Assembly (NCBI RefSeq): GCF_026151205.1
Contig: NC_087078.1
Location: 18,245,118 to 18,309,117 of the forward strand
Length of the DNA stretch: 64,000 nucleotides
Origin: Bolinopsis microptera
Taxonomy: Eukaryota > Ctenophora > Tentaculata > Lobata > Bolinopsidae
Reading direction: 5' to 3'
Below the pieces are notes generated by a model. It searched no databases. It was not told the origin of the DNA and saw nothing but the letters and a program-made list of their open reading frames with translations. The position numbers and the translations under genes are program-made. Every line of letters starts with the position of its first letter. The first letter of the stretch is position 1. Below are positions 4,047 through 62,814 of this stretch, piece after piece.

Positions 4047-7000
4047 ATGTCTGAGGACGAGTCAAGACCTGAACATGAACTGGAAGGAGAGGAAGACGCG
4101 TTTGGGGAACTGGTGCAGAATTACAACAGGCCCCGCGGAAGGGGCGGAGCCGATTTGATGCAGATGGGACTAGCTCGACGGTACTCACAGATCCCAAGTA
4201 AGTGATTTGGTTGTGATTGTATTATTGTTGTTTATTCTAGAAGATTATTATGCCCAGTAAGTAATTACCTGCCCCTGGTACGCCACTGATCCCTATGCGC
4301 GGCGCTCTTTTCAAGCTTCTTGCACGATCCTCTTTCCGTGAGACAGTTGAGCAATGGACTAGGTAAAATAAATAACAATAAAATGGTATTTAAAGAAATA
4401 ACAAGATGTGTTTATGGTTGTTCTCCTCAGATATCACGACTCCTAACAGTGTAAACACTAATTAAGGCCCCTTCCAGCCATTGCCACTGCGAATTTAACC
4501 TAAAACCTGCCCAGTTAATAGCGAAGACTGCGAAATTACCACTCCTGCCTAGTAATCTAATTTACCCTGTCCAGATCAGCAGTATATTACACTAAATCCG
4601 CAGGTTTTCTCTTAATTTTTTATGTCAAAACCTGCCTAATTAACTAGTGATCCTGCATCAACAGCGCAGGTATTTGTTATTTGGCAGGTTTTCTATTAAC
4701 TTGGCAGGATTTGCTATAAAATTATCAATCCTTTCCGGATGGATTACGGCAGTGATAAAGTTAAATCGGCAGGTTTTCCATTAACTTGGCAGGATTTTTT
4801 ATAAAATTATCAATCCTTGCCGGATAGATTACGGCAGTGATGAAGTTAAATCGGCAGGTTTTCCATTTACTTTGCAGGATTTGTTATAAAATTATCAATC
4901 CATGCCAAATAGATTATAATGCTATAATCTTATTATGGCAGCGTTAAATTTATAAATTGGCAGGTTTCTTTTATCTTTCTTTTAAGTTCTTAAGTTATTT
5001 GGAATTTTGCTTATTTGGCACCAAAACTAAAAGTCAATAAAACCGAGTTGATTAGCGCAGTCAAGAAATTGGCCGGAGTTGATAAATAGCTGACAACCAT
5101 GGCACTGAATCTCCAAATGAGAGGTATAGTACGCTATATACTTATATAGTACGGTACCGCAACAATTGACCCCCCCCCCCCCCCCCCTCCGACAAATGAC
5201 CCCCTGATGCAATCTACCCCCGACAATTGACCCCCCATGTAATTACACTGGGGTCAATTCAGGGTTAGGGTAAGGGTTAGGGTCAGGGTTAGGGTCAGGG
5301 TTAGGGTCAGGGTTAGGGTCAGGGTTAGGGTCAGGGTCAGGGTTAGGGTCAGGGTTAGGGTCAGGGTTAGGGTTAGCGTTAGGGTTAGGGTTAGGGTCAG
5401 GGTAAGGGTTAGGGTCAGGGTTAGGGTTACTGGGTAACACGACTCCTGTCAGCGACATCTGTCCGACAGCGACATCTGTCCGACTCAGGGTACCAGAAAA
5501 ACGACATTTGTCCGAAATTGTGATCTGATTTCAATACAACACATTTCCAATTAGAGACGTGATCTGAACTGTTAATTTGAATACGTAACATTGCCAATTT
5601 GAGATATGATCTGAGCCATAGTGTACTACTAGTTTATTTTCGACCTAGGCAGGCAGGCATGAAGCAACTGCGTTGTGAATGGCGAGCTCGTAGTCCATGA
5701 GAATGTATTGTGGTTGGTAGCCCCAAGGCCTCAGAAGCCCAGGTGTCTATCTCCTCGAACATGTCGTCGATTTTCCAGGAATGAGTCCTTAGAAGAGGGG
5801 GAGGTGCCAGCCGTCAGGGAAGAGTCCGTGGACTGTGAAGAGCTGATGGAAGAGATTAGGTGCGGATTTGAAGGTACCGTTGGGCGTTGACTACGCAATG
5901 CTCCGCGTCCACCATATGATCTGCGTTCTTAGGAGTCCCCCAAAGGAATGATCGACGAGTCTGTTCGTCCCATCCAGAGTCCCAGAGCATCATTGGACTG
6001 TTGTCGGTAGAGAGGATTTAGTTTGCAGGAATGGATAGCGTTTCCAGATCTCTCGGGTCTGTTTGCTGCAGATCTGGGTCTGTTTACTGAAGATTGGTTG
6101 CCATTGTGGATTGCGATAACTGATCTCCATACGGCTGCTATCCTATATGTACTCATGTAGGCTGTGTCCTGTGATGTGATCGACAGCTTGTTAGTGTACG
6201 GCTAGCACAATCCTGTCCTTAAATAGTCAATCACGTATCGATGGATCAGATCTCAATGGATCAAATCAGCATTCGAACAATGGGAGCAACGTCACGAAAT
6301 TACCCGTGAGTTTGTGAAATACGAATGTGAACCGAAATTACAATATGATCCGAAATTCGGACAGATGTCGCCAAAAACGACTCCTGTCCGACAGCGAAAT
6401 CTGTCCGAAATCCCCAATTCGGCTGTCGGACAGATGTCGCTGTCGGACAGATGTCGCCCAATCGGGTTACTGTTAGGGTAAGTATAATAAATATATTTGT
6501 TTGGTCAATTGTCGGGGGGGGGGGGGGGGGGGGGTCAATTTTCAAGTATTATATCACTTGCACCGTTTAGCTCCACGTGGTTTCTTAAGCGTAAATACTT
6601 AACTGTCCTGTCAAGATAAAGTAAATCACTATCACCTCTCATTCTTAATAAGTTAGTAAGCAAGCATCTGATCATTTTAAAACAGTCGCCTCCCAATTTA
6701 GCAAGTTCTTACATCTATATTACAGTCTACACCCTTCAATAATGAGATAATATGTTTGGCCGGTAGAGGGTCCGCAGTAGTCCCATTACAGCATTACCTG
6801 GCCTCATTACCTTAGCATTGCTGTACAGTGTACAACTACTATAAGAGTATAAGATATACATCCTTCACCAAAACTGGTTTGTCCGCTTTCTATTACTAAT
6901 TTTCCGCTGAAAGTGCCACATCAGTGATCAATTAATATTGGTAAATAGCAATAATTTGAGTTATAGGTTGACCTCCCACTTAGAGCATATGTGGGAGGTC

Positions 7001-10000
7001 AACCTATAAATTATAGTACGAGCTATTTCCAATTCGTGAATACGAATTTCGATTAAGGTCCAACTTATTAAGTGTCACTTTAACGTGTGACAAATTTCCG
7101 ATCAAATATCTCATAATCTGAAAATAACTGCATATTTAGAACTATTATATTAATTGTAATTGAAGATTCTTTCAGAATCACTTCATTCACTAAATCTTAC
7201 AATGTGAACAATGAACAGGTAGAGGCACTGCAACTGAAAAAGTGCTGTCCTCACTACTTAAGAACATAGCAATCTAATCTAAAAATGGCAACCTAAGAAC
7301 TGAAGTTAAGCAAACAGTTATTTTCCAATAATCGGTTTTTATACATGCTTCATATCGCGGTCATCTGAGAAGCTAGAACTCTCATTCTTTCAGGGCAAAC
7401 GTAATTCGAATGGCCAAACACAATTCAATAACATTTAGCTTGATCCGATTATCCAAACTATCAAAAAAATGTGAAAATGAACCTCCATTTGAAAAAAATG
7501 AACGCGAATATTTTTCGAGTTGACAAATTCCTCGAACCAGTGGTGGTACTAAGTCATACCAGAAGGAAGTATTTCAATTGGGCACTCAGTGACTGAGCTA
7601 TTAAGGCCAACGTTTGCACACTGACTTTTGGCCCACCCTGTACTTTTATACTCAAACTTATCATAGACCCCGTGTTGGTAACAGTGGATAATATGCAGTG
7701 GCGAAACGTACCTAAGAGGCCGCAGCTGCACCCCCCCCATCCCCTTCCGCATAGCAGGGGTTGCCGGAGTGTCGGGCGGTCGTTTCGCCACTGACTAGTA
7801 GTAGTGACTGCATGTATAAAAGTATAAACTATAGAGCCATGTAGGCATGTAGCATTCTGTACTTCTGTAGCTTTTCACAAACCAAGTCTCAGTCCTACAC
7901 CCTACCTAGTAATAAGGTTATACGATCATTACAGTATTCCACATTGTACACTCAAATTATCCAAAACCCCTGCCAATATAGGTTTAATCACGCCACAAGT
8001 TGATTCAAATTATCTCAACTTACGCAAGATTTGCGTTAAATCTGCAGCATTCGACTTTATATTTAACGGAAAACCTGCCAAAATAGAGCAAACCTGCCGA
8101 GAGTAGGTGAAAGGTGAGGCAGGTTTTGTGTTAATTTTGCAGGCTTTTCTATAAATCAACAACTCGATTAAATAATTACGTGAGATAAATCTCTGCACGA
8201 ATACGATAAATAGGCAGGTTTTCGGTTAATTTTGCAGGAATCATTTTAAGACTTCAAATTGATTATCAGTCTTAATGTAAAACCTGCCAAATTAGGTGGC
8301 AGGTGGCAATGGCTGGAAGGGGCCTTAATTATAATGAGGGAGATAGGGTAACCTGGGTAACCTGTTAACCTGGGTAACCTGGGTAATCTGGGTAATCTGG
8401 GTAACCTGGGTAACCTGGTAACCTGGGTAACAAGATGTATTTATAGTTGTTCTCATCAGATATTCCGACTCCGAACAGCGTATACACTAATTATAATGAA
8501 GGAGATAGAGTGAGTCTACTGCTCATCCCTACTAACATCATCGTTATTCCAGGTAACACACTTCCAATTATATCATTAATTAGAATTTTAATAGCAACTC
8601 CAATTAATTCTTGCTGAACAATTCAATTTTGAGGGGAAATTTGAATCGGAGTGATAAGCTGATCTCTTCGATAAAACAATAATTCGCATCAAGCGAAATA
8701 TTCTTCACTCAAACCAGCACCTTATAAACTTACACGAGATTTATCCCAGGATTAATGTTCCCGCTGAGGTTTAGAGACGACCAACACACAGGATTACAGT
8801 TCGCTCTGCTCAAAAACCTACTTGATAGTGACGATCCTAATGTGTTTGGGGCCGTGCACGTGCCTAACGAAGAGTGAGTCATAAAAATGAAAAAGAAATG
8901 CTGTCTTAGAATAGGCTGCGGAATATGGTCGCAAGCTTAATTCTTCTTCTTAAAGTCTGTTTAAGGTAACATTGGTTGACAGTCTGCTCATAATCAAGCG
9001 AGCTTTCCCGAACTGATACTTTCTGTCAGAGTCGGCCGTGTACTAATCGGCAGACTTGATCCTGATCATTCACTTGATAATTAACTCCAAGCTAACTAAC
9101 CAATTTTGTGCAGTGAAAGATTAGAGGATACCTGGTGCGACTGCGGTGTTACAGTTCAGATACTTGAGGTAACAGAAGAGAATCAGAGCAAACTGGAACT
9201 AAAGTGCATGGGTACTATACTACCTCATTAATATATAATTGATTATCTAATTATCTTCACGCAATGTTTACACTTTACACGTAAACATGGATTATATATA
9301 TCTTTACAGTGCCTTATCAAACATCAAATGATAATTATAGCCTCTCTTGGCCTGAATAATAGAGAATTTGGAAACTTCCATTCTGTTTTTTCACACAGAT
9401 ACACTTAATAAATCTAGTATACAGGGTGAGTTGAAAATAGTATATATATGTATATATATATATATATATATATCCATAGACACAGTGTTTCGTCCTATTA
9501 GGACTCATCAGTATGGCTCAAATCATCAAGGTTGGTTTTGCCGATGGCGGGTATCGATCCAGCAACCTTGCGATTACTGGCTCGACGCCGCACCACTGGG
9601 CCACCAGGGCCTTAATAATGAGGGAATTACATAGGTACCAGAGTGCTCTACAAACATATATATATATATTTATATAAACTATACTATAATATATATGTAC
9701 AGGTAGACAGAGATATGAGGTGATATCAGAAGAGTTAACTTCAAGACATATGAGAGCTACAGATACACGAGGACCAGAAACAACCTCGCCTTCTTGATCC
9801 TGGTATAGACTAATACTTTAATAGACTGCGCAGTTTGAGAAATCGAGGAGGGTTAACTCTCCGTTATTTTATTCCGATCAAACATAAACCCTAAACTTAT
9901 CTTTATTTTAAGAGCATTTATTTATTAAATACAAACTCTCAGAAATCTCTTAGAACTTGATCTCTCACAAACAAATGTCCGGTTTATTACACCACGTCCC

Positions 10001-12608
10001 ACAGCTGGTAAAGTAAAAGATACGTTCCTGCGAGGACCCCTCCCAGTGTGGCAGCACCGACTCAGGGACGTCTTCACTCTGGAGAAACTGATTAAGAACG
10101 AGATAACAACGAGTTGCCCTGGTATTAATGCGGACTCTGCCCCAACTGAGCCCATCATGTTCTCTTATTGGATAATCAGTACTATGCCCTTCAAGTTCAA
10201 ACAAAGGTTAGATATTGTTAATTATAATGATGAATGTTGAATTGAAGAACATTCACCGGTAATAGGACTTCAAGAGTCTATTGTCAACCCATTCAAGGGG
10301 AGATGTTATCTCTTATCTCTATCATAGGGCCCGCTGTTAGGCCCTTAAATAGAGTTATGATGGTCAGTAAATGAGGATGTAGCACTGGTATAAATCATAA
10401 ATTCCTGCGAAACTAACAATTACCATCTACACAGAAACAAGATGCTGAGAGAGGATAACCTGATTGTGAGACTCCGATCTCAACTGAACTACTTGCGACT
10501 TCTCAACCACTTTGATTACTGTTGTCTCGAGTGTGGACCCAACCATCCAGTTGTCAGCTGCTCTGATCTTATGTCCATGAAGTCTGAAGGTCCTTTTTAT
10601 CATCTCAAACCGGAGGGTACGTCGTTATGATAACAACCATTTAATTAAGTTATGTTGAGATTAGTTAGTTATTAATTTATGTTAAGATTAGTTAGTTATT
10701 ATGTAACTTTTAGGAGATTAGTTGTTAACTTTAGTTTCCTTTAAATATTTCTGTTACAGTGTGTCACATCTTAACCATTGCAGTATAATTAACGCATATA
10801 AATTTAGATTTTTTTCCCTACTCTTGCCGAAGGCAAAAAGATCGTAGGGAATAAGTAATCGGGTTTAGATATATGAGGTGGCCCGATGGACCTGCGGTGA
10901 CGACAAAAGTCTGCTCCTTCGCAATATAGACCACTCCCCTATTTTATCTTAAACTTTTCGAACAATACATAATTATACAGAATTGAATGCTTCTAAATAA
11001 ACCCAGTTATAAAAGGAAAAAACCGATATAGCCCTAATTTTCACTATCCCAGAATATCGAAACCCAAATTATGTATTGAAAGAGGGGTAACCAAAACACG
11101 GTAGTGTGCAGTAAGAAATACCACACCCGCAATAACATTGGGCCCTAGCAACAATTAATTAATCAATGAATCAAAACATATAATATTGTACTTATAGAAA
11201 ATATATCACTCTGAAGGCTCCTTCTCCGAGCTAATGACTCTTAAGTTCCTGATTACGTGAACTTTGTCCGGCTCTGCTGTCCTTTTATTCAAGGTTGTTA
11301 AATACGTATTAGGAGGGAATACGTATTGGAATACGAATACGTATTAATGCTCGAAAATTGACGTATTACGAAAAGGTGTGGCTTGAAGTTGAAATTGATC
11401 ACGGACGGTCTTTAAATTCTGAACATCAAAATCATTAAATATGTATTAATATGTAATTGATAATTTCGCAAAAAATGTTAGCTTATCGGATTATCCATGA
11501 AATTTGATTACAAATTTAAGTTATCATGTATAACTGCACTCCTTTAATGCATGATCAATGATGAGGGTGGCGCGCAGCTGTAATGTTTAATTTTGACAAA
11601 TCAGCGTATTACGGCGTATTATGGCGTATTCGTGGACGTATTTAACAATCCATAGAAATTACCGTATTACGGCGTATTACGACGTATTCTTTATTAGAAC
11701 CGAATACGTCGTATTATTTCACGAAAATTTGACGTATTTAACAACCTTGCTTTTATTGAGTAGCTGTACGACAACTTTCTTGTAGGCTATTCTGTCTGCA
11801 GCTGATCTATCAGGAGTTATGTAAACAGAAGTAAAATAATTAAGTGTATAGGAAACGTCTGTTATGCTGCGCGCGACGCTAGCCATGTGTTAATTAATTA
11901 CAGTGAAATTCCTCCTTCGCAAAGTTATTTTCCGCAATTTTCTGGATGTCACATCTTAACCATTGCAGTATAATTAACGCATATAAATTTAGATTTTTTA
12001 TTTACAGTCCTTCAATTATTAGCAAATTAACAATATTAATTTATAAATATCAGGAGGATAGAACAACTCAAATGTATATTTCAACTTTTAGATAGCTCCC
12101 GATTTCACAGCCACTACCTCCAGGAATGTTCGACGAGACAGTACTGACCACCAACGTAAACACTGATCATGTGTACTGGTACGGTACCGCTACCAGGAAG
12201 AGTGACCTTACTGGATATGGTAGAACACTGCTCGGTTGTAAAACGTAGGTAACCTTGGTAACCTTGGTAACCTGGGTAACCTGGGTAACCTCTGGTAACC
12301 TGGGTAACCTGGTAACCTGAGTAACCTGGGTAACCTGAGTAACCTGAGTAACCTGGGTAACCTGAGTAACCTGAGTAACATGGGTAACCTTACCTTTGAT
12401 GTGATCGGATATTTTATCTTGCATAACAATTTGACTTCATTTTAATATCGCTACAATTGTTTTATTTTGCAGGTGTTTGAGAGATCTAGGCTGGAAATTT
12501 GCTGCATTTGACGTGACCACTCAACCACAAATGTTCTATGGTTTGAAAAGGAAACTCTTGCTCATACAAGCCAGCAAAGATTACGAATCAAGCTCAGACT
12601 CTGAATGA
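4047..12608 (+). CDS. CRBN: Cereblon paralogue B, nine exons, one apparent +1 frameshift
   Basis: Exons 4047-4197, 8460-8552, 8750-8873, 9114-9211, 9703-9802, 9954-10206, 10435-10616, 12124-12244 and 12473-12608 have matching phases and GT-AG borders. They total 1258 nt, one more than 419 codons, against 442 residues in human CRBN. The start ATG at 4047 opens an acidic leader (MSEDESRPEHELEGEEDAFG). LON-domain landmarks are LIPTNIIVIPG, LMFPLRFRDDQHTG, the EIYAYRE-like strand at 9114 and GRQRYEVISEEL at 9703. The helical linker ends MFSYWIISTMPFKFKQR. CULT-domain zinc pairs CCLEC and CKTC are present. Two cage tryptophans are replaced: the SWFPGYAW segment reads SDLTGYGRT (W380 to Asp, W386 to Arg by alignment), while GWKF is kept. 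Exon 9703-9802 starts in one frame and must end in another (LQIHEDQKQPRLLDP), so there is one extra base near 9750-9757. The gene is either recently broken or carries a sequencing error. Intron 1 holds a large transposon. Confidence 0.87.
4431..4464 (+). pseudogene. Duplicated copy of CRBN-B exon 2, left half
   Basis: The segment and its preceding intron end (ACAAGATGTGTTTATGG, then the TTCTCCTCAG acceptor) match the functional exon at 8460 and its acceptor. The match runs on until TAATTA, where the 3.86-kb element begins. The remainder of the exon copy resumes at 8326-8349 (TAATTATAATGAGGGAGATAG). This exon copy can no longer be used intact. Confidence 0.8.
4675..4945. repeat. About 92-bp subterminal tandem repeat, three copies
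   Basis: Units begin GGCAGGTTTTC and contain GGCAGGATTT, then TATAAAATTATCAATCC and a GGATxGATTACGGCAGTGAT segment. Three copies are recognisable, the last one degenerate. The GGCAGGTTTT motif recurs near the other end (8120-8300), so it belongs to the host transposon. Confidence 0.75.
5254..5432. repeat. Telomere-like GGGTTA/GGGTCA repeat
   Basis: About 175 bp of GGGTTAGGGTCA permutations, mixed with a few GGGTAA units. It resumes for a few bases after the MULE (6473-6480, TTAGGGTA). The mixed TTAGGG/TCAGGG composition and the internal position argue against a chromosome end. Confidence 0.85.
5433..6463 (-). mobile_element. 1.03-kb Mutator-like element, TSD GGGTTACTG
   Basis: The 9-bp GGGTTACTG occurs at 5424-5432 and 6464-6472. 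Both ends carry inverted copies of GCGACATCTGTCCGACA, duplicated in tandem at each end. Nine-base duplications with such ends are characteristic of MULEs. A decayed transposase fragment on the minus strand supports this. It sits inside the telomere-like repeat. Confidence 0.75.
5648..5891 (-). pseudogene. MULE transposase fragment, frameshifted
   Basis: Read on the minus strand, one frame gives NGTFKSAPNLFHQLFTVHG, matching the DGTFK..P..F.QLYTIH signature of the MULE transposase domain with the catalytic Asp replaced by Asn. A second frame, reached after stops and a shift, gives PQYILMDYELAIHNAV, matching the following D.E.A..NA signature. Several stops and at least one frameshift separate the two, so no functional product is possible. 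The rest of the transposase is missing. Confidence 0.7.
6961..7009. repeat. Perfect 19-bp stem hairpin
   Basis: TTATAGGTTGACCTCCCAC at 6961-6979 pairs completely with 6991-7009, leaving an 11-nt loop. It lies within the 3.86-kb transposon. It could be a tiny inverted-repeat element or a small structured RNA; sequence alone does not decide. Confidence 0.85.
7696..7793. mobile_element. 98-bp MITE with CAGTGGCGAAACG ends
   Basis: CAGTGGCGAAACG at 7696-7708 is inverted at 7781-7793. CAGTGGCG termini are common in hAT elements. I could not find an 8-bp flanking duplication, so the family call is tentative. Confidence 0.5.
8334..8432. repeat. GGTAACCTG minisatellite
   Basis: About nine copies of a GGTAACCTG(G) motif, directly following the broken exon-2 copy and ending at the ACAAGATGTAT start of the duplicated intron end. 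The same motif occurs after two other CRBN 5' splice sites. Confidence 0.85.
9470..9640 (-). mobile_element. tRNA-derived SINE in a CRBN-B intron
   Basis: On the minus strand 9612-9545 reads like a tRNA head. It has an A box TGGCCCAGTGG, a GGTTGC stretch and a B box GGATCGATACC, the two internal promoter elements of RNA polymerase III. The body continues towards a TA-rich stretch at 9446-9472. The anticodon region is not that of a working tRNA. Ends and target duplication are not clear. Confidence 0.65.
10617..12123. other. CRBN-B intron 7 with 52-bp direct repeats and a hairpin
   Basis: A segment starting TGTCACATCTTAACC at 10762 recurs almost identically at 11947, 1185 bp downstream, each copy about 52 bp. 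Between them are a hairpin at about 10814-10852 (CCCTAC paired with GTAGGG, inner TTGCC/GGCAA) and a hAT-like MITE. No exon is visible apart from the flanking ones. Confidence 0.7.
11290..11749. mobile_element. 460-bp hAT-like MITE, TSD CTTTTATT
   Basis: CTTTTATT at 11282-11289 and 11750-11757 flank inverted ends CAAGGTTGTTAAATACGT. An 8-bp duplication and CAAGGTTG-type termini fit hAT transposons. The interior carries many ACGTATT/AATACGT subterminal motifs on both strands and no coding capacity. Confidence 0.8.
12246..12395. repeat. GGTAACCTGG/A minisatellite beside a splice donor
   Basis: About 15 units of GGTAACCTGG, GGTAACCTGA or GGTAACCTT begin at the 5' splice site of CRBN-B exon 12124-12244. 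The donor itself (GTAGGTAACC) merges into the first unit. Confidence 0.9.
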
Positions 12609-12950
12609 GACACAGAGGCACCACGTGGTACCTCACATTACACTACACAGAGTGATTTACTATTCTAGAAAACACTCTCTTAACTCAAATAATTGGCGGA
12701 TACAGCCTACAGGGACTATTATATTGTAGAGCTGACACTGTCAACTGTTGATCGAACCAAACTTGATGATAACTAAGTTGTTGCTGAGGACCCGTGACCT
12801 TTGAATATTTTGTGATATTTTATTATATTTAAGGTTTGAAAATTCAATTACTGAGTCCAATCAGTTTATTTACCGGGAAAATGCATTATGAATTATCTAA
12901 CTGTATTCAGTAATTTTATTAAATTTGTACCCGACTTCGGGCACTAAAAA
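12609..12950. other. CRBN-B 3' flank
   Basis: This stretch has no features beyond the likely 3' untranslated region of CRBN-B and a short palindrome CCCGACTTCGGG near 12930. The closest clear AATAAA downstream of the stop is at 13048-13053, already inside the diverged edge of the satellite. Confidence 0.5.
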
Positions 12951-15900
12951 TGAAAACCCTGAATACTTTGGCCTAAAATTCTGTCAAATATCATGTTTGA
13001 AAATGAAACAGAAATGGAATAATTTATAATACCACTTTCCGTTCTGTAATAAAGTCTCTAGAAAGTACCTCAATTGTACCTTGACCAAAATTTCACAGTT
13101 TTGACTAAATTTTTCTCCAGTGACCAATTAAGCAGTGAACAATAGATGGCATTTGACACAACTGAGGTGCTGGAAGTTTGATTTCGGTCGGAGGAAGCCC
13201 ACAGCAGAAAGCTTAACAAAACGAAAAGTTGTATTTTCAAAATTCTGTCCCATTTTCAAATGTGAAATTTTCTGAACACAAATTTGACAGATCGGATGAA
13301 CTTTTTGCCCAGAAACCAATTAGTCAGCTAATTGATGATGATATGAAACCAAACTGAGGTACTGGGAGTCAAAATCCCGAATAAAATTGCAAAATCATAT
13401 TGTCCCAATCTCTGTCCCATTTTCAGTTTTTGAAGATGAAATTTCCAGGACCGAAATTTTACAGTTTTTACTGATTTTTTCACCCGCAACCAATAAGTAA
13501 GTCAACTATAGGTGCCATATGACACGACTGAGGTGCTGGAAGTTTGATTTCGGTCGGAGGAAGCCCACAGCAGAAAGCTCAACAAAACGAAAAGCTGTAT
13601 TTTCAAAATTCTGTCCCATTTTCAAATGTGAAATTTTCTGAACACAAATTTGACAGATTGGATGAAATTTTTGCCCAGAAACAAATTAGCAGCTAATTGA
13701 TCATGGTATGAAACCAAATTGAGGTACTGGGAGTCAAAATCCCGAATAAAACTGCAAAATCATATTGTCCCAATCTCTGTCCCATTTTCAGTTTTTGAAG
13801 ATGAAATTTCCAGGACCAAAATTTTACAGTTTTTACTGATTTTGTCACCCGCAACCAATTAGTAAGTCAACTATAGGTGCCATATGACACGATTGAGGTG
13901 CTGGAAGTTTGATTTCGGTCGGAGGAAGCCCACAGCAGAAAGCTTAACAAAACGAAAAGTTGAATTTTCAAGATTCTGTCCCATTTTCAAATGTGAAATT
14001 TTCTGAACACAAATTTGACAGATTGGATGAAATTTTTGCCCAGAAACAAATTAGCAGCTAATTGATCATGGTATGAAACCAAATTGAGGTACTGGGAGTC
14101 AAAATCACGAATAAAACTGCAAAATCATATTGTCCCAATCTCTGTCCCATTTTCAGTTTTTGAAGATGAAATTTCCAGGACCGAAATTTTACAGTTTTTA
14201 CTGATTTTGTCACCCGCAATCGATTAGTAAGTCAACTATAGGTGCCATATGACACGATTGACGTGCTGGAAGTTTGATTTCGGTCGGAGGAAGCCCACAG
14301 CAGAAAGCTTAACAAAACGAAAAGTTGTATTTTCAAAATTCTGTCCCATTTTCAAATTTGAAATTTTCTGAACACAAATTTGACAGATTGGATGAACTTT
14401 TTGTCCAGAAACCAATAAGCAGCTAATTGATGATGGTATGAAACCAAATTGAGGTACTGGGAGTCAAAATCCTGAATAAAACTGCAAAATCATATTGTCC
14501 CAATCTCTGTCCCATTTTCAGTTTTTGAAGATGAAATTTCCAGGACCGAAATTTTACAGTTTTTACTGATTTTGTCACCCGCAACCAATTAATAAGTCAA
14601 CTATAGGTGCCATATGACACGATTGAGGTGCTGGAAGTTTGATTTCGGTCGGAGGAAGCCCACAGCAGAAAGCTTAACAAAACGAAAAGTTGTATTTTCA
14701 AAATTCTGTCCCATTTTCAAATTTGAAATTTTCTGAATACAAATTTGACAGATTGGATGAAATTTTTGCCCAGAAAAAAATTAGCAGCTAATTGATCATG
14801 GTATGAAACCAAATTGAGGTACTGGGAGTCAAAATCCCGAATAAAACTGCAAAATCATATTGTCCCAATCTCTGTCCCATTTTCATTTTTTGAAGATGAA
14901 ATTTCCAGGACCGAAATTTTACAGTTTTTACTGATTTTGTCACCCGCAACCAATTAGTAAGTCAACTATAGGTGCCATATGACACGATTGACGTGCTGGA
15001 AGTTTGATTTCGGTTGGAGGAAGCCCACAGCAGAAAGCTTAACAAAACGAAAAGTTGTATTTTCAAAATTCTGTCCCATTTTCAAATTTGAAATTTTCTG
15101 AACACAAATTTGACAGATTGGATGAACTTTTTGCCCAGAAACAAATTAGCAGCTAGTTGATGATGGTATGAAACCAAATTGAGGTACTGGGAGTCAAAAT
15201 CCCGAATAAAATTGCAAAATCATATTGTCCCAATCTCTGTCCCATTTTCAGTTTTTGAAGATGAAATTTCCATGACCGAAATTTTACAGTTTTTACTGAT
15301 TTTATCACCTGCAACCAATTAGTAAGTCAACTATAGGTGCCATATGACACGATTGAGGTGCTGGAAGTTTGATTTCGGTCGGAGGAAGCCCACAGCAGAA
15401 AGCTTAACAAAACGAAAAGTTGTATTTTCAAAATTCTGTCCCATTTTCAAATTTGAAATTTTCTGAACACAAATTTGACAGATTGGATGAAATTTTTGCC
15501 CAGAAACAAATTAGCAGCTAATTGATCATGGTATGAAACCAAATTGAGGTACTGGGAGTCAAAATCCCGAATAAAACTGCAAAATCATACTGTCCCAATC
15601 TCTGTCCCATTTTCATTTTTTGAAGATGAAATTTCCAGGACCGAAATTTTACAGTTTTTACTGATTTTGTCACCCGCAACCAATTAATAAGTCAACTATA
15701 GGTGCCATATAACACGATTAAGGTGCTGGAAGTTCGATTCCGGTCGGAGGAAGCCCACAGCAAAAAGCTTAACAAAACGAAAAGTTAAATTTTCAAGATT
15801 CTGTCCCATTTTCAAATGTGAAATTTTCTGAACACAAATTTGACAGATTGGATGAAATTTTTGCCCAGAAACAAATTAGCAGCTAATTGATCATGGTATG

Positions 15901-18900
15901 AAACCGAATTGACTAATTGAGGTACTGGGAGTCAAAATCCCGAATAAAACTGCAAAATCATATTGTCCCAATCTCTGTCCCATTTTCATTTTTTCAAGAT
16001 GAAATTTCCAGGACCGAAATTTTACAGTTTTTACTGATTTTGTCACCCGCAACCAATTAGTAAGTCAACTATAGGTGCCATATGACACGATTGACGTGCT
16101 GGAAGTTTGATTTCGGTCGGAGGAAGCCCACAGCAGAAAGCTTAACAAAACGAAAAGTTGTATTTTCAAAATTCTGTCCCATTTTCAAATTTGAAATTTT
16201 CTGAACACAAATTTGACAGATTGGATGAACTTTTTGCCCAGAAACAAATTAGCAGCTAGTTGATGATGATATGAAACCAAACTGAGGTACTGGGAGTCAA
16301 AATCCCGAATAAAATTGCAAAATCATATTGTCCCAATCTCTGTCCCATTTTCAGTTTTTGAAGATGAAATTTACATGACCGAAATTTTACAGTTTTTACT
16401 GATTTTATCACCCGCAACCAATTAGTAAGTCAACTATAGGTGCCATATGACACGATTAAGGTGCTGGAAGTTTGATTTCGGTCGGAGGAAGCCCACAGCA
16501 GAAAGCTTAACAAAACGAAAAGTTGTATTTTCAAAATTCTGTCCCATTTTCAAATTTGAAATTTTCTGAACACAAATTTGACAGATTGGATGAAATTTTT
16601 GCCCAGAAACAAATTAGCAGCTAATTGATCATGGTATGAAACCAAATTGAGGTACTGGGAGTCAAAATCCCGAATAAAACTGCAAAATCATACTGTCCCA
16701 ATCTCTGTCCCATTTTCATTTTTTGAAGATGAAATTTCCAGGACCGAAATTTTACAGTTTTTACTGATTTTGTCACCCGCAACCAATTAGCAAGTCAACT
16801 ATAGCTGCCATATAACACGATTAAGGTGCTGGAAGTTCGATTTCGGTCGGAGGAAGCCCACAGCAAAAAGCTTAACAAAACGAAAAGTTAAATTTTCAAG
16901 ATCCCATTTTCAAATGTGAAATTTTCTGAACACAAATTTGACAGATTGGATGAAATTTTTGCCCAGAAACAAATTAGCAGCTAATTGATCATGGTATGAA
17001 ACCGAATTGACTAATTGAGGTACTGGGAGTCAAAATCCCGAATAAAACTGCAAAATCATATTGTCCCAATCTCTGTCCCATTTTCATTTTTTCAAGATGA
17101 AATTTCCAGGACCGAAATTTTACAGTTTTTACTGATTTTGTCACCCGCAACCAATTAGTAAGTCAACTATAGGTGCCATATGACACGATTGACGTGCTGG
17201 AAGTTTGATTTCGGTCGGAGGAAGCCCACAGCAGAAAGCTTAACAAAACGAAAAGTTGTATTTTCAAAATTCTGTCCCATTTTCAAATTTGAAATTTTCT
17301 GAACACAAATTTGACAGATTGGATGAAATTTTTGCCCAGAAACAAATTAGCAGCTAATTGATCATGGTATGAAACCAAATTGAGGTACTGGGAGTCAAAA
17401 TCCCGAATAAAACTGCAAAATCATACTGTCCCAATCTCTGTCCCATTTTCATTTTTTGAAGATGAAATTTCCAGGACCGAAATTTTACAGTTTTTACTGA
17501 TTTTGTCACCCGCAACCAATTAGCAAGTCAACTATAGCTGCCATATAACACGATTAAGGTGCTGGAAGTTCGATTTCGGTCGGAGGAAGCCCACAGCAAA
17601 AAGCTTAACAAAACGAAAAGTTAAATTTTCAAGATCCCATTTTCAAATGTGAAATTTTCTGAACACAAATTTGACAGATTGGATGAAATTTTTGCCCAGA
17701 AACAAATTAGCAGCTAATTGATCATGGTATGAAACCGAATTGACTAATTGAGGTACTGGGAGTCAAAATCCCGAATAAAACTGCAAAATCATATTGTCCC
17801 AATCTCTGTCCCATTTTCATTTTTTCAAGATGAAATTTCCAGGACCGAAATTTTACAGTTTTTACTGATTTTGTCACCCGCAACCAATTAGTAAGTCAAC
17901 TATAGGTGCCATATGACACGATTGACGTGCTGGAAGTTTGATTTCGGTCGGAGGAAGCCCACAGCAGAAAGCTTAACAAAACGAAAAGTTGTATTTTCAA
18001 AATTCTGTCCCATTTTCAAATTTGAAATTTTCTGAACACAAATTTGACAGATTGGATGAACTTTTTGCCCAGAAACAAATTAGCAGCTAATTGATCATGG
18101 TATGAAACCAAATTGAGGTACTGGGAGTCAAAATCCCGAATAAAACTGCAAAATCATACTGTCCCAATCTCTGTCCCATTTTCATTTTTTGAAGATGAAA
18201 TTTCCAGGACCGAAATTTTACATTTTTTACTGATTTTGTCACCCGCAACTAATTAGTAAGTCAACTATAGGTGCCATATGACACGATTGAGGTACTGGAA
18301 GTTTGATTTCGGTCGGAGGAAGCCCACAGCAGAAAGCTTAACAAAACGAAAAGCTGTATTTTCAAAATTCTGTCCCATTTTCAAATGTGAAATTTTCTGA
18401 ACACAAATTTGACAGATTGGATGAACTTTTTGCCCAGAAACCAATTAGCAGCTAATTGATGATGGTATGAAACCGAATTGAGGTACTGGCATGGGAGTCA
18501 AAATCCCGAATAAAATTGCAAAATCATATTGTCCCAATCTCTGTCCCATTTTCATTTTTTGAAGATGAAATTTCCAGGACCGAAATTTTACAGTTTTTAC
18601 TGATTTTGTCACCCGCAACCAATTAGTAAGTCAACTATAGGTGCCATATGACACGATTGAGGTGCTGGAAGTTTGATTTCGGTCGGAAGAAGCCTACAGC
18701 AGAAAGCTCAACAAAACGAAAAGCTGTATTTTCAAAATTCTGTCCCATTTTCAAATGTGAAATTTTCTGAACACAAATTTGACAGATTGGATGAACTTTT
18801 TGCCCAGAAACAAATTAGCAGCTAATTGATCATGGTATGAAACCAAATTGAGGTACTGGGAGTCAAAATCCCGAATAAAACTGCAAAATCATACTGTCCC

Positions 18901-44171: not shown

Positions 44172-45471
44172 ATGAAAGTGTTTGTTTCCCTCCTCTGTAT
44201 CATCATGATAGCGAGTAAGTTTATATATTCTTTAAAAACCATTAATCCTTTTAATTTTAAATTGCAAAATAAAGAAGAGAGTCCCTCTGATTTTAAAACT
44301 GAATTGCAACAATATCACCTCAAAATTAGCAAGTTCTGTTTTCCAAGGTGCAGCAGAACAGTTTACGATATGGAAGACAGACAGTGAGCGCTCCTACGAA
44401 GGGTTACTGATGGTGAGTATCAACGGAGCAGCTCGTAAAAACGTATGTCGACACTATTCTTCTTACTATTACTATCCCGATGCAAGTACTTCTCTCCAGA
44501 TCTGCAAGAAGCTACACTTCCACCTACTTGTCTCCGTGGACATCACAAGCGGCAGCCTCTATCCGTTCCGCAATCACTACTCCTCAGGTATGTACAAACT
44601 AAGGGGCTGTAACCCAACTTGTAGTTACAGTTCATCTTCTGCTTGTACTAGCATAAGTTATTACACCAAGATCTCTTGCGGATGCTCTGGAAACTTCTAT
44701 GCAACAGCTGACGGCTGCATCTCCTGCCCAACAAACAGTGTAAACGCAACTGGTACTGTGGGTAGATGTTCCTGCGAAGCTGGCCTGTACTGGTCGGGGG
44801 GTCACTGTCTACCTTGTCCAGCGTACAAGTATAGTGCTGCTAACTCAGTGAACTGCACCCAGTGTCCTAACGGAGCTACCTCCACCCCTGGTTCAAGTAA
44901 CTGTGTCTGCTTTCCAGGGCTACACAAGGAAGGTACAGAGTGTAGGGAATGTGGTGGGAACACTTTCAGTGTTCGGAACAGCACATCTTGTACAAATTGT
45001 CCTGAAAACAGCACCGCCTCTCTCGACCACTCTGCTTGTGAGTGTCTGGGCAACTATCTCTGGAACCCAGCCGGCAACAACTGCACTGAGACAGAGAAAC
45101 ACCACTCAGAGGAACCTTCAACCAACATGACTACCACAGTGCCATCGAACAACGCCGCTCAACCATTAACCACAAAGAATAATATCACCCAAAACAACAA
45201 GCAGACAGCAGCTCCGCAAATACTGGACAAAAAGACCAAACTTGGAAATCCTCATCCCGTGACGACAGCACTACTGATTGTGATTCTGGTGGCAGTTCTG
45301 GCTTGCCTCGTTGCAATTGTGATCCGGACATCCTGGAGAAAGACAAAGGAACCCGGGAGGATGATCATGGGAGGACTGCAAGATCGAGATCTCCCGACTG
45401 GACCCCCTCCAAAACCACCAACTTGCTGTGTAGACGAGGAGGATATTTATGTCGACCAAGATATTGCATAA
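44172..45471 (+). CDS. Cysteine-rich type I membrane protein, copy 1
   Basis: Exons 44172-44214 and 44348-45471 join in phase to 388 residues. Exon 1 is a signal peptide (MKVFVSLLCIIMIA). Residues about 30-125 have a GLLMVSING..VC and QICKKLHFH pattern that faintly recalls a scavenger-receptor (SRCR) domain; this is inference. Residues about 125-260 hold three to four cysteine-rich repeats of the ephrin-receptor-like (GCC2/GCC3, TNFR-like) kind, for example CISCPTNSVNATGTVGRCSC. A Ser/Thr/Asn-rich stalk with N-glycosylation sequons follows. One transmembrane helix spans about 320-340 (ALLIVILVAVLACLVAIVI). The cytoplasmic tail carries a proline motif (PPPKPP), a CC pair and an acidic tyrosine motif EEDIYVDQ. 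The role is unknown; adhesion, recognition or immune reception are possible. A second copy lies 9.7 kb away. Confidence 0.85.
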
Positions 45472-45516
45472 CTTAAAGAGCTAGGAGTAGGAGGACGCGA
45501 CTAAACATTATTTTAT

Positions 45517-45879: not shown

Positions 45880-46254
45880 GGCTCTTACTAAATCGCTCGC
45901 CCAAAAATTTCACGTGACTTTGGTTTTTTTGGTTTTGCAGCCGTACAAAACGGTTTTACATAAACTATAATCCCAACCCTAACCCTAACCATAACCCCGA
46001 AGCTATCCATAATCTTAACCACAACCCTAACCCTAACCCGAGCCCGAAATAATCGAATTCACGTTTTACTAGCCTGTCACGTGACCAAAACGGTTTTTTG
46101 CCCATAACTCTCCAGGGAAGCATTTTAACCCTACGTCATGGGGGGTGATTCAGAATCAGCGTCCAAAAATACACCGATCTAGATCACTTTCATGCCTAAA
46201 GGGCCTTTTCACAAGAATTTTCTTAAAATTTGGGCGAGCGATTTAGTAGGAGCG
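45880..46254. mobile_element. 375-bp MULE-type MITE, TSD CATTATTTG
   Basis: CATTATTTG at 45871-45879 and 46255-46263 flank inverted ends containing TACTAAATCGCTCGCCCA. The paralogous sequence at 46890-46912 (CATTTCATTTAATTTGACC) looks like the empty site. The centre has telomere-like CCCTAA units (about 45974-46040) and two CACGTGA boxes. Confidence 0.75.
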
Positions 46255-47966: not shown

Positions 47967-58082
<10,116 letters not shown>

Positions 58083-59409
58083 CTACATGAGAGGAAAACG
58101 GGGAATCATTCACCATCAAGGAAAAACTCCTGGAATGCGCTAGCCTATGATAAATACCGACAAGCCCTAATAAACAACAAATTTCGATTTAATCTTGATT
58201 GTACAAAATACATTTTCATTCTATCCAGTGCCGAAATTTGACACGGTTAAAGTTCGCTCAGTTGCGCGTTCAAGAGATAAAATTGCGCGGCTTAATGAAT
58301 CTTTATTTTGGATAAACAATCGAAGATAAACAATAAAATCAAAAATTAAAATTTACACATAATTTTGAAGATTTTATTGCATCATCAGTGACAATCTTTA
58401 TGATTTACTGGTGGTTGACTCAATCAGTATTTGTCATCGAGTACTTTGGCTATTATTTTAGTATTTGTTCATGTTTGCAAAATTAAAATTAAAACTTCAC
58501 GTTCCACGTTCGCGTTTTTAATAAATAAACCAATTAATTATTTTATATGTATCGTATATTTATATATATATATTTAAGTGTTATAATTTACCAATTGTTC
58601 GTTTGTACTTATTAAAATAGTAAAATACTACATATTGTACAATAATATAAAATAAGTAATTGGAGGACTTCGCCGCTTCGACGCGCCGCGCAAACTAGCA
58701 CTCTTGCTTCGCATCGACGAGATTGTTGCAAAGCATTTAATAGATCTGGAAGGGTTGACATCTTCAATCAATAAAACGATAATGTGGGCCACGACGTAAT
58801 ACTTGAAGGCTTTTCAAAATTTGTACCATTTTTATTATGTTAAATCTATTGTATTTCGTATTGGTTTATGCACTTTTCGAGGATATCTGTCCTTATATTG
58901 TAGCTAGTCAATACCAGTGCTGAAATTATCTGTATACGGTTGAACCATTTTTATAGCATTCAGTTAGCTGATCGTTGGGGCTGTGCTGATCGAGATTTTG
59001 TTAAGCTGTTTCTATCAAATAGTTATGTACAGAATTGTGAAATCACGAACTGTTATTATCTAAATTAACCACATTCATCACAATGAATTTGTCATCTCAA
59101 ATAAAATAGCCATCTACACTTAATTAACAATGATTCGTCTAAATTTATTGCATGCAGTTTTTAATACAGAGTCCCTGTTGCAAGCCAGGAGAGTACGACT
59201 CCTGAGAAGCACAGATTAAGGGGCTTCAAACTCTGAGGGTCTCTTATCTGCGCAATCATTCAGAGAACTGTAAACAGAAGTTTGACAGCCTCGATAAGCT
59301 TACTAATATCCGAGGTACTTTGTAACTTTGGGAGAGTTATGGTGCCTACCACAAGCAATACGATCAATTACATTAAAGCTTTACTGCCCGGAGAGACCTA
59401 CTATAATAG
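58083..59409. other. Upstream region of YY1
   Basis: This contains the likely YY1 promoter and 5' untranslated region, read on the minus strand. The only notable composition is a short CG-rich patch (GACGCGCCGCGC near 58680) in otherwise AT-rich sequence. No further exon is evident. Confidence 0.4.
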
Positions 59410-59419
59410 GTGTAGGCTG

Positions 59420-61449
59420 AGGCGGTTCATTTTACCATAAGTTGTTTAAATAATTAGAGAACATATCTTATTAGTTGCTCTATAGGGTCAGGAACAACCA
59501 AACAATTTTTTTGACTCTAATGTTTCGGATAATGTTGACTTAGGCCACGCCCATATTTTTCACCAATTTTTAACAGGTAAAATTCTCCAAATCGTCAATT
59601 TAGTCATGAAGGGGTATGGTAGGAGTTCAAAATGTGTGCTCCTCTAATATAAACAGTAGAAAATGGTTAACTTTAGTCGAGGTCTCAGGTCTCTACAATG
59701 TCGGGAAGTTCCTGCAGGAGTTTGCGCATTGCGCTGAAGCGCTAGATTCACTGCGCCAAAAGTGAAGGTCGTAGAGACATGAGACCTTGACTAAAGTTAA
59801 CCATTTTATACCATTACTATACAAGAGTGTGACACTTTCAGAGTCCTGAACACACTCCTAAATCTCTTAAATTTTACCTCTTTAAAATATATCATCTTAA
59901 TAACATAATAATTTAAATAAAATTTTTCAAACAGTATACAGTACACATAATGTCACAATAACTCTATATAAAAATAAAAATAAACCCTTCAACAACTCAA
60001 AATTTTGAAAATCACCCTTGGCCTTGCGGCTCCAAGTTGAAATCTAAATCTTGGAGCCGCCTCTCTCTTTAACTGATGTCAATTTGGTTTAACACTGTTA
60101 ACTTTTAAAAAGAAAATAATGCTTCACACCCAACTTACACACAGTATAAAGATATACAAAAAGATTCCAAATTGAACTTTGATTTTATCCTGGGACTGAT
60201 TATCACTTCTCGATTGTTCTCCATTCTCCAATGCAGTCAGAAAGTTCAGATTTAGGTAGACTTGGTTTTGGAATCTTTGTATGTTCAGAAACAGGCCAGA
60301 AGGGGTTTGGTTACCAGAGGAATTGAATATCTTCGTGGAACAAGGAAATTAATGAGGTCTTCGTTGATTTCTATATAACTCGTCACTGACAGGATGAGTA
60401 TTGACGAGATCCACTGCTTACTTCATAGCTCGTCATTGATAGGATCAGTATTAGTGAGGTTGAATGATTACTTCATAGCTCGTCACTAACTGGATCAGCA
60501 TAACACGACTAACGACTAACGAGGTCCAGTGATATCTTGCTGATATGTCAAGACAAGGTCAGTAAATAACTATAAAAAAATTGCTTACAAATTACTGAGT
60601 GCAAATGCCTTCTTCACAACTACCGGCTATGAACGGAACAGATGAATCTCTTCTTTGGCTTCATCTTTTTAAATGACCCAGTCCCTCTGTAACGAGATAA
60701 TGTTTAGGACTAGGAGGAACTTAGTGAAGTTCTCATAGGATTCGCTAAGAGGAAAATTCCTTAGTAAGCTAACATTCTTTTGTAGGATGTTACCACTTAT
60801 CATATCTGTTATCACTTATCCAGCATAATCCCACAACTAGACCCTCTCATTCTTGAGTCTTGACAATGACAGCTGCATTGGCATTATTTTGATGCTCGGT
60901 CCAGGTCGTCTCCATGAAAACCTTTCTTTTGTATACTCTCATATTGTGTGTTAGTTTGGTGTGAAGTAAATTATTTTCTTTTTTAAAGCTAATAGTGTTA
61001 AACTTAATTGATATCAGTTAAAGGGAGGAGTGTGTTCAGGACTCTGAAGTAATGGTATAAAATGGTTAACTCTAGCCAAGGTCTCATGTCTCTACGACCT
61101 TCGCTTTTGGCGCAGTGAATCTCGTGCTTCAGCGCAATGTGCAAACTCCTGCAGGAACTTCCCGACATTGTGGAGACCTGAGACCTCGACTAAAGTTAAC
61201 CATTTTTTACTGTTTATATTAGAGGAGCACACATTTAGAACTCCTTCCATACTCCTTCATGACTAAATTGACGATTTAGAGAATTTTACCTGTTAAAAAT
61301 TGGTGAAAAATATGGGCGTGGCCCAAGTCAACATTATCCGAAACATTAGAGTCAAATAAAATTGTTTGGTTGTTCCTGACCCTATAGAGCAACTAATAAG
61401 ATATGATCTCTAATTATTTGAACAACTTATGGTAAAATGAACCGCCCTA
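59420..61449. mobile_element. 2.03-kb MULE with ~430-bp terminal inverted repeats
   Basis: GTGTAGGCTG (10 bp) occurs at 59410-59419 and 61450-61459. The left arm (59420 to about 59860) begins AGGCGGTTCATTTTACC. The right arm (about 61025-61449) is its inverted copy with scattered differences and ends GGTAAAATGAACCGCC plus CTA. Long arms and a 9-10-bp duplication are hallmarks of Mutator-like elements. The interior has no transposase that I can see. It contains an 11-bp stem hairpin (60026-60060) and three loose copies of AGCTCGTCACTGA at about 60376-60490. Confidence 0.85.
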
Positions 61450-61459
61450 GTGTAGGCTG

Positions 61460-62542
61460 CTGCACATCAGGTCATATTATTCAGAATCGGAGGCATCTGT
61501 TGATAGATGGGTCCTGGTGTGCCAACAATAAGACAGTGCTTTTAGTTAGTGTTAAACGTCATTCAATACATACATTTAATTAAATCATTTGATGCAATTG
61601 GCAGAGCACAATTATAAATCATGAGGAATAAATCTCATCTATCCCTCGTTGTGACAGGCTTATATTACCCAATTTTACATGAACGATATTCTCACTAGAG
61701 AAAATACTACAATATAATCAAGGTACGATGTTGGATACCTGAGTTCTATATCTGTCGATAGTAACTCCATCTATGTATCTGCTTAGCTTCCATCACTGAT
61801 CCTGGTACTTGAGATTCCAGGTGTGGCTTAAAACAATGTTTTAAGGGCCCAACACTCAGCTCACTCAGTTGATGGTAGAACAGTGGGTCTTTGTGCGATG
61901 TTGTAGCAGGGACTCCACTTCTTGTTTTCTCTTGCTAACCAGATTGCATAGGAACATCTGAGAGCAACCAAAGCCGCCTCTTGGAACACTGCTTTCTTTA
62001 CTCTCTTTGTAACACCAATATAAAGTAGAGTAAAGCAAAGTAAAATTTATGACATGTCTACAAAATATTATCGCACTATGTGAAAAAATATAGAATAAAT
62101 ATTTTGAGAGCGTAAAGAGAATGCTTTCCTACACTAGGGTACACTGGGATTCGAACCATGGACCTCCTGCGCGGAAGGCAGAAGCTCTAACGCATGTGTG
62201 TCTTTTCTTGCTATGTTATTAAATTTGTAGAATGCCTCATTAACTCAGATGCTGCTAATAATGTTTATAATAGTTCACCAATTTAATGCATTGGCGTTTA
62301 AAGTAATTTATAAGTTATTGCATTAAATAGAGAATGACTGTAATGTATGATCAATTAAAGCTGATAAAACTCGTTTGAGATCCATTCATTCCATTGCTAT
62401 CATTAAGAACCGGTTTTAACTTAAATTTATCCTAATCATGACAACAATTTCTACCACTTAACTTGATATTTTTCTAATGATTACACCCTTATTTTACTAC
62501 AATATACTCGACTTCTACAGTGTATACACATAGGTGCTCAAT
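61460..62542. other. Intergenic, nothing coding
   Basis: Apart from the tRNA-like remnant near 62150-62205 I see no gene or element here. Confidence 0.5.
62145..62206 (-). ncRNA. tRNA-like remnant (tRNA pseudogene or SINE head)
   Basis: On the minus strand the sequence reads GTTAGAGCTTCTGCCTTCC, then GCGCAGGAGG and GGTTCGAATCCC, which is an anticodon arm and a T-loop B box. The T stem has mismatches and no convincing D arm or acceptor stem closes, so I do not call a working tRNA. Confidence 0.45.
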
Positions 62543-62805
62543 GGGGGGGGGTGTCACGTCCGTCTATGTCCGCTTGTCTCATAGAATCCAAAAAGGACAG
62601 GACATAGGCGGACATAGACGGACATAGGTGGACATAGGCGGACATAGACGGACATAGGCGGACATAGGCGGACATTAATGGACACCTAAATTGCTAAATA
62701 AAATGTTCAATTTTTGCTGTTATAGGGGGATCATGTTTTTTGTCCGTTCGGTACCCTATATTTTCAAAACGGACAAAAAATAGAGCGGACAAAAACGGAC
62801 AAAAA
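62543..62805. repeat. G-run plus GGACATAGGC minisatellite
   Basis: Nine G at 62543-62551 are followed by TGTCACGTCCGTCTATGTCC. After a short spacer come about nine units of GGACATAGRC in the opposite sense, ending near 62680. GGACAAAAA units follow up to 62805. The left end resembles the G-run-capped elements, but no closing C run is seen. Confidence 0.75.
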
Positions 62806-62814
62806 TGGAAATAA

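What the first reader, a model, noticed from the sequence alone, without database searches (positions are those of the whole stretch)
5164..62805. A family of G-run-capped inverted elements, each with its own ~10-bp motif
Five loci (5164-6540, 51117-51990, 53961-54712, 56114-56475, 62543-62805) share a plan but not a sequence. Each has a long G run at one end (written C at the left for the first), a short tandem motif just inside (GGGTTAGGGTCA, TGTCAATTAA, ATATACTTTA, TTTACACT, GGACATAGGC), and a non-coding core. In the three complete ones there is also an inverted motif and a C run at the other end. One has a clear 7-bp duplication, so they move. I know of no described class with this combination; the motif seems to be replaced between members while the cap is kept.
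Basis: partly seen in the sequence, partly recalled or inferred. Interest (0 to 1): 0.8.

Follow-up and report, generated by a model that had tools for sequence, protein, structure and literature searches.

The report
G-capped, hairpin-ended mobile DNA families
Several unrelated families of small jumping DNA in this animal genome share one unusual layout, a run of Gs at each outer end and a hairpin copied in the same direction just inside both ends; they clearly have moved, but the enzyme that moves them was not found.

Summary
Largely real. Four of the five loci (E2 51117-51989, E3 53961-54712, E4 56114-56475, E5 62543 to beyond the window) belong to dispersed families in a 264.65-Mb animal genome (probably the ctenophore Bolinopsis microptera; inferred). 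The fifth (E1, 5164-6540) is not independent: sister copies share its flanks, and its core is a decayed MULE. Target duplications: E2 8 bp (23 of 24 copies; 0 of 552 mismatched flank pairs), E5 6 bp (4 of 4), E3 6 bp (11 of 15 resolved of 20 fetched). Among listed exact termini of E2, E3b and E5, close neighbours face each other 110 times, stand back to back 2 times, same strand 4 times. This resembles composite KolobokP and Mutator/foldback ends but fails a defining test of each. No transposase of their own was seen in the long copies sampled; 11 MULE loci examined had no facing G/C caps that could be assigned to the MULE. Best reading: non-autonomous cut-and-paste DNA transposons of an apparently undescribed composite variety.

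The parts
51117..51989 (+). E2 element: G cap 51117-51123, direct terminal repeats about 51128-51226 and 51875-51974 built on TGTCAATTAA, non-coding core, C cap 51981-51989
   Evidence: sequence; 556 candidates, 40 scored; direct 156, inverted 42
51109..51116 (.). left copy of the 8-bp target duplication CATGTGTA (right copy 51990-51997)
   Evidence: (8 bp fits)
51990..51997 (.). right copy of the 8-bp target duplication CATGTGTA; its C is the last C of the run
53961..54712 (+). E3 element: G cap 53961-53979, direct terminal repeats about 53992-54063 and 54604-54675 built on ATATACTTTA, C cap 54682-54712; no visible duplication here
   Evidence: (1572 candidates, 40 scored; direct 129, inverted 70; flanks shared with L033)
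56114..56475 (+). E4 element, old: G-rich cap 56114-56130, direct terminal repeats about 56133-56189 and 56417-56469; right cap missing
   Evidence: (103 candidates, 40 scored; direct 50, inverted 30; sister L060 69 and 31)
62543..64000 (+). E5 element, left part: G cap 62543-62551, hairpin repeat with motif GGACATAGGC, then TCC-rich minisatellite core; the element runs on past the window end
5164..6540 (+). E1 region of the finding: C run, telomere-like array, decayed MULE, G run; internal to a larger repeat, not a capped element
   Evidence: flanks shared in 3 of 3 copies; outer part 77-85% like the ends of MULE L088
5431..6464 (-). decayed MULE inside E1, no intact transposase frame
   Evidence: 87-89% identical to L086 over three pieces; no frame above 81 aa
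4463..8327 (.). larger repeat that contains E1, ends AAGGCCCCTTCCAGCCATTGCCAC and its inverse

Best explanation
E2, E3, E4 and E5 (and F6 and F7, met elsewhere in the genome) are separate families of non-autonomous DNA transposons built on one composite plan: an outer G-run cap that is inverted between the ends; just inside it a 55-100-bp, mostly palindromic terminal repeat made of a motif of about 10 bp, standing in DIRECT orientation at both ends; and a non-coding core. Shown: dispersal, target duplications of 8 bp (E2) or 6 bp (E3, E5), head-to-head termini, inner repeats that match better direct than inverted, one solo cap-repeat-cap copy with the 6-bp duplication of its family and two more solo-like units. 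Inferred: a transposase supplied in trans binds the palindromic repeat (which reads alike whichever way it points), cuts at the G end and inserts by staggered strand transfer; two duplication lengths suggest at least two such enzymes. The longest G runs are later slippage of a G5-7 end. Solos arise by recombination between the direct repeats, as solo LTRs do, or because cap-repeat-cap is itself mobile; elements with new cores could form when two units mobilise the DNA between them.
For: Target duplications: E2 23 of 24, E5 4 of 4, E3 11 of 15 resolved; mismatched flank pairs 0 of 552, 0 of 12, 2 of 210. Exact termini: 131+135 (E2), 111+136 (E3b), 373+350 (E5) matches, reversed control 0 each; among the first 100 places of each, 33, 35, 42 close neighbours face each other, 0, 2, 0 are back to back. 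Direct above inverted score in 9 of 9 elements of six families. Solo L103 with AAATAA on both sides; solo-like units at C1:7819656 (E4) and C1:4497176. Hairpin z of -2.4 to -7.3 in 12 of 14 units folded. G/C runs at E2 ends: median 6 and 6, maxima 22 and 14, 20 copies.
Against: No transposase found inside any G-capped copy sampled, so the class of enzyme is unknown. The direct excess is modest in E5 (105/78, 104/84) and E4 (50/30, 69/31), and palindromes give inverted matches too. Two hairpin units fold weakly (E4 solo z -1.6, E5 right end z -1.7). Four of 15 resolved E3 copies do not fit 6 bp (L033, L034, L041, L047) and five of 20 were not resolved. A G-run element in L090 (TTAA ends) has inverted, not direct, ends (22/315), and the MULE family of L090/L091 has direct hairpins without G caps, so the two features are not strictly tied. 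The flanks of the two solo-like units were not read.
Confidence: 0.7

Rival explanations
1. The G-capped families are simply non-autonomous Mutator-like (foldback, Tm1-type) elements moved by the genome's MULE transposases.
For: 88 MULE domain matches in the genome; MULE ends here are arrays or hairpins of 15-17-bp motifs; one MULE family has direct hairpins (L090 107/66, L091 112/66) and flank repeats of 8-10 bp were found at 3 of 4 MULE loci tested, close to the 8 bp of E2.
Against: In the 11 MULE loci examined no facing G/C caps could be assigned to the MULE; in L090 a facing G8/C8 pair brackets the MULE but belongs to an outer TTAA inverted-repeat element. 6-bp duplications of E3 and E5 are short for MULEs. 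77 of the 88 matches were not examined.
Confidence: 0.35
2. They are KolobokP-like composite transposons in which the terminal repeat is itself the mobile unit and recombination between direct repeats makes solos and multimers.
For: Direct terminal repeats with short inverted ends and purine/pyrimidine termini, solo units, as described for KolobokP (PMC9587614).
Against: KolobokP has 3-5-bp duplications and repeats of about 450 or 660 bp; here 6 or 8 bp and 55-100 bp. Kolobok transposases were not searched for.
Confidence: 0.12
3. They are miniature LTR-type retroelements (TRIM-like): direct terminal repeats and solos by LTR recombination.
For: Direct terminal repeats, a solo copy, 6-bp duplications in E3 and E5.
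Against: 8-bp duplications in E2; palindromic repeats; inverted G/C-run ends lying outside the direct repeats. Primer-binding sites were not searched.
Confidence: 0.03
4. Chance neighbours of homopolymers and microsatellites.
For: Long G runs are very common (71583 + 78551 G14 start positions), and 14 of 16 sampled stretches gave no facing partner with repeated flanks.
Against: Dispersed copies with shared ends, target duplications, 110 facing against 2 back-to-back neighbours.
Confidence: 0.01

Closest known systems
KolobokP composite-like DNA transposons (Kojima and Bao 2022, PMC9587614; abstract and passages seen)
   Same: Core flanked by terminal direct repeats that carry their own short inverted ends; solo repeats with target duplications; purine...pyrimidine termini
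   Different: KolobokP repeats are about 450 or 660 bp, duplications 3-5 bp, and the core encodes a transposase and a His-Me nuclease; here repeats are 55-100 bp hairpins, duplications 6 or 8 bp, no coding core seen
Tm1 Mutator/foldback family of root-knot nematodes (PMC3169594; passages seen)
   Same: Ends made of a variable number of short tandem motif units; MITE-like and histone-hairpin non-autonomous forms beside transposase-bearing ones
   Different: Tm1 ends are inverted, motif 13-15 bp, duplications 8-10 (mostly 9) bp, no long G-run cap in the passages read
MULEs of this same genome (L086-L096)
   Same: Motif-array or hairpin ends, 8-10-bp flank repeats at L086, L088, L090; direct hairpin in L090/L091
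   Different: Motifs of 15-17 bp, no facing G/C caps assigned to them in 11 loci examined
Placozoan Mutator ends and ctenophore chromatin loops (PMC12221973; passages and one section read)
   Same: Early-branching animals whose promoters carry many transposable elements
   Different: No G caps or direct hairpins in what was read; any link to these families is untested

Membership tests
Non-autonomous DNA transposon (MITE in the broad sense) | Dispersed copies, short inverted ends, fixed-length target duplication, no coding core | tested here: met
   E2, E3, E5; coding absence only in the copies sampled
Non-autonomous DNA transposon (MITE in the broad sense) | An autonomous partner with the same ends | tested here: inconclusive
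   Not found in the long E2, E3b and E5 copies sampled nor in 11 MULE loci; other transposase families not searched
KolobokP | Core between terminal direct repeats with own short inverted ends; solo repeats | tested here: met
KolobokP | 3-5-bp duplications; repeats of about 450 or 660 bp | tested here: not met
   6 or 8 bp; 55-100 bp
KolobokP | Kolobok transposase and His-Me nuclease | not tested
   No search for Kolobok proteins was made
Mutator/foldback (Tm1 type) | Ends of tandem short motif units, variable in number | tested here: met
   E2 left 5-14 and right 8-18 units in the 18 usable copies; arrays
Mutator/foldback (Tm1 type) | Motif arrays inverted between the two ends | tested here: not met
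   Direct above inverted in 9 of 9 elements
Mutator/foldback (Tm1 type) | 8-10-bp target duplications | tested here: inconclusive
   E2 8 bp; E3 and E5 6 bp
Mutator/foldback (Tm1 type) | MULE transposase in a full-length member | tested here: inconclusive
   Present in MULE loci but not found inside G caps; 77 of 88 matches unexamined
IS3EU/GingerRoot | TA..TA (or TG..CA) termini with 6-bp duplications | tested here: not met
   Termini are G..C; the 6 bp alone agrees for E3 and E5. Definition from passages of PMC10045372
Dada | No terminal inverted repeat; insertion in small RNA genes | tested here: not met
   Inverted caps are present and duplications differ from copy to copy; flanks were not searched for RNA genes. 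Definition from passages of PMC3706591
TRIM / LTR retroelement | TG..CA repeat ends, primer-binding site, 4-6-bp duplications | tested here: not met
   G..C ends and 8 bp in E2; primer-binding site not tested. Definition recalled

The most novel reading that the evidence does not exclude
An undescribed structural class of eukaryotic DNA transposon: the mobile unit is a G-capped palindromic hairpin (the solo), and two units in direct orientation mobilise whatever lies between them, so that many families with unrelated motifs and cores share only the cap and the hairpin plan. The transposase would read hairpin geometry and the G end rather than one fixed sequence, and more than one enzyme (8- and 6-bp duplications) serves the same plan.
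Probability: 0.25. Interest if true: 0.75.

Novelty: new variant of a known kind. Interest (0 to 1): 0.5.

Why it matters
If the plan is general, composite (unit-core-unit) DNA transposons are not limited to KolobokP, facing G runs with a direct hairpin inside become a simple signature for finding them in early-branching animals, and part of the poly-G content of this genome is explained. It also raises a testable question: what reads the ends of elements whose motifs share no sequence.

Tried and rejected
E1 as a capped element: rejected; flanks shared in 3 of 3 copies compared and core 87-89% identical to MULE L086 over three pieces.

Autonomous partner by long paired ends: a 14-kb E2 copy (C2:14698090-14712052, AGTCTACT on both sides) proved to be an E2 with two nested insertions whose frames look like LINE proteins (read by eye; no domain search was run on them). 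Four E5 copies of about 4.9-6.5 kb were sampled by 1.8 kb each and one 2-kb E3b copy by 1.2 kb: GGA/TCC core or minisatellite (L104-L106), a nested reverse-transcriptase-like frame (L107, by eye) and a nested E2-like G-capped end (L108). A 2.1-kb E2 copy (L097) has no frame of 80 aa or more. Only parts of these copies were read.

MULE as direct partner: 11 of 88 matched loci examined; no facing caps that belong to the MULE. The facing G8/C8 pair in L090 belongs to an outer element.

Every long G run as a cap: 14 of 16 sampled stretches gave no facing partner with repeated flanks within what was fetched.

Short-spacing tests without family sequence: G8-N10-40-C8 2090 start positions against 718 for the reversed order; G10-N60-90-C10 757 against 350. 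The counts are start positions, swollen by long runs and by a G/C minisatellite at C1:2117355, so they are weak support; of five places visible in the listing two look like solos.

Literature: nine paper searches ran; no title or abstract start shown to me named G-capped elements with direct hairpin ends. They cover open-licence papers only and list at most 20 of the hits.

In one search the array-unit counts of L017 and L026 are not usable, because these two were read on the other strand.
Full report
Where it is. The window is C7:18245118-18309117 of a 264,652,675-base genome in 232 contigs. The printed lengths of contigs C1-C13 are 15-26 Mb.

Are the loci real repeats? Each was searched in its own genome; 40 candidates were scored each time: E2 556 candidates, full-length hits 91-100% identical; E3 1572, 78-100%; E1 1162, 90-100%; E4 103, 70-87% apart from itself; E5 1513, 94-100%. 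High identity suggests recent movement of E2 and E5; E4 is old. G/C runs of 7 or more number 13 in the window against 3.1 expected.

Termini and target duplications. For E2, 20 copies fetched with flanks, L097, L098, the 14-kb copy and the window copy were tested: an 8-bp duplication fits 23 of 24 when single Gs or Cs shared with the runs are counted, and 0 of 552 mismatched left-right flank pairs. The exception, L098, shows ATTAGCAT against ATTAGAAT. For E3, 15 of 20 fetched copies were resolved and 11 fit 6 bp, with 2 of 210 mismatched pairs; L033, L034, L041 and L047 do not fit 6 bp, and L047 fits 7 or 8. For E5, 4 of 4 fit 6 bp (0 of 12 mismatched). The window E3 and L033 share flanks at 99%: one segmental duplication, one missing duplication.

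Do the caps pair head to head? Exact terminal words: E2 131 and 135 matches on the two strands, E3b (the CCAACC subfamily of E3) 111 and 136, E5 373 and 350, each with 0 in the reversed control. Among the first 100 listed places of each, successive places within 5 kb (E2) or 7 kb (E3b, E5) face each other 33, 35 and 42 times, are back to back 0, 2 and 0 times, and on the same strand 1, 1 and 2 times. Both back-to-back cases lie in one tandem array on C5.

The unexpected anatomy. Local alignment of the two ends of each element, caps removed, gives direct/inverted scores of 156/42 (E2), 129/70 (E3), 137/49 (E3b, L047), 50/30 and 69/31 (E4, window and L060), 105/78 and 104/84 (E5, L065 and L067), 135/34 (F6) and 99/65 (F7); the highest score of 20 shuffles was 31 or less. 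Inverted matches exist too, as palindromes demand, but are lower in 9 of 9; the margin is modest in E4 and E5. In six comparison elements the inverted score is equal or higher: MULE L086 69/70, L088 30/223, L087 20/264, a TTAA element in L090 22/315, the repeat round E1 46/49, a small hAT-like element 10/21. The TTAA element has G runs near its ends, so a G run does not always go with direct ends. One MULE family has direct hairpins without G caps (L090 107/66, L091 112/66). Hairpin folding gives z of -2.4 to -7.3 in 12 of 14 units, but -1.6 in the E4 solo and -1.7 in the E5 right end.

Solo units. Direct repeats predict solo copies. One E3b pair lies 70 bases apart: C2:16545420-16545760 (L103) reads G23, one 85-base hairpin, C31, with AAATAA on both sides, the 6 bp of its family. 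A short-spacing search also showed an E4 solo at C1:7819656 and a unit of a further family at C1:4497176; their flanks were not read. Solos are rare where they could be counted: 1 of 35 facing E3b pairs, 0 of 33 E2, 0 of 42 E5.

Unbiased look at G runs. The first 16 G14 clusters of C1 on the + strand were fetched. L071 holds G32, 12 bases, C24 between copies of AGTATAT (7 bp). L080 with L081, completed as L085, resolves into F7 nested in F6; the F7 flank repeat is ATCTTTT, or ATCTTTTG with one shared G; that of F6, GTTCCCA(G), lies in a tandem repeat and is uncertain. In the other 14 no facing partner with repeated flanks was seen; some lie in tandem repeats, and three beside a shared CAGGCACGTAGC motif (L075, L083, L084). 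Long G runs here have several origins.

E1. Three of three sister copies compared share the sequence from window 4463 through and beyond E1, which ends in AAGGCCCCTTCCAGCCATTGCCAC and its inverse. The inner 1 kb is a decayed MULE, 87-89% identical to L086 over three pieces; the outer C/G-run repeats resemble the end motif of MULE L088 (77-85%). E1 is a nest.

Who moves them? The MULE domain has 88 matches; the three frames scanned carry FLYWCH and MULE domains. Flank repeats were found at L086 (8 bp), L088 (10) and L090 (9) and not at L091. In the 11 MULE loci examined, no facing G/C caps could be assigned to the MULE; a facing pair in L090 belongs to an outer element. The long E2, E3b and E5 copies sampled hold nested LINE-like frames, minisatellite or another capped element. 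The partner remains unidentified; other transposase families were not searched.

Mechanism. Shown: dispersal, duplication length, paired caps, direct inner repeats, one solo with its duplication. Inferred: trans-acting DDE transposases, palindrome recognition, slippage of the G run (median 6 at each end of 20 E2 copies, maxima 22 and 14), and recombination or solo mobility as the origin of solos. Two duplication lengths suggest at least two enzymes.

Relation to known kinds. KolobokP is the nearest published architecture and Tm1 the nearest in end composition. A defining feature of each was tested and not met, so the families are filed under neither; that lowers 'it is a KolobokP/Tm1', not 'it is built like one'. 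No title or abstract start shown by nine paper searches named this combination.

Noticed in passing
window 13083-40233: A 27-kb satellite array, 365-bp unit, about 74 copies, 89% matches.
   Followed up: no
window 4463-8327: A 3.9-kb repeat with ends AAGGCCCCTTCCAGCCATTGCCAC that carries nested MULE material; no frame above 81 aa.
   Followed up: partly
window 7698-7795: Small element with ends CAGTGGCGAAACG and inverse round a C8 run; hAT-like by recalled motif.
   Followed up: no
window 44410-45471 and 54959-55942: Two similar cysteine-rich membrane-protein frames with weak, below-cut-off NCD3G matches; the second sits in a stretch duplicated at C7:17885400.
   Followed up: partly
L086, L087, L088: MULE frames of 467-487 aa without stops that carry FLYWCH and MULE domains between motif-array ends.
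   Followed up: partly
L101 2859-9957: Two adjoining long frames (1224 and 1143 aa) that look like a LINE, nested in an E2 element; no domain search run.
   Followed up: partly
L090 547-3494: Element with 85-bp inverted ends TTAAGGGGGCCGGGGGGGGTCTTC that brackets a MULE; G runs with inverted ends.
   Followed up: partly
G000 C1:2117355-2117917: Minisatellite of G runs and C runs round TACTCATGACT, akin to the 12 bases inside the L071 unit.
   Followed up: no
L075, L083, L084: Three of the 16 sampled G runs lie beside a shared CAGGCACGTAGC motif, perhaps the end of another repeat.
   Followed up: no
G000 C5:6766346-6771165: E3b copies repeated in tandem with a period near 2.4 kb.
   Followed up: no
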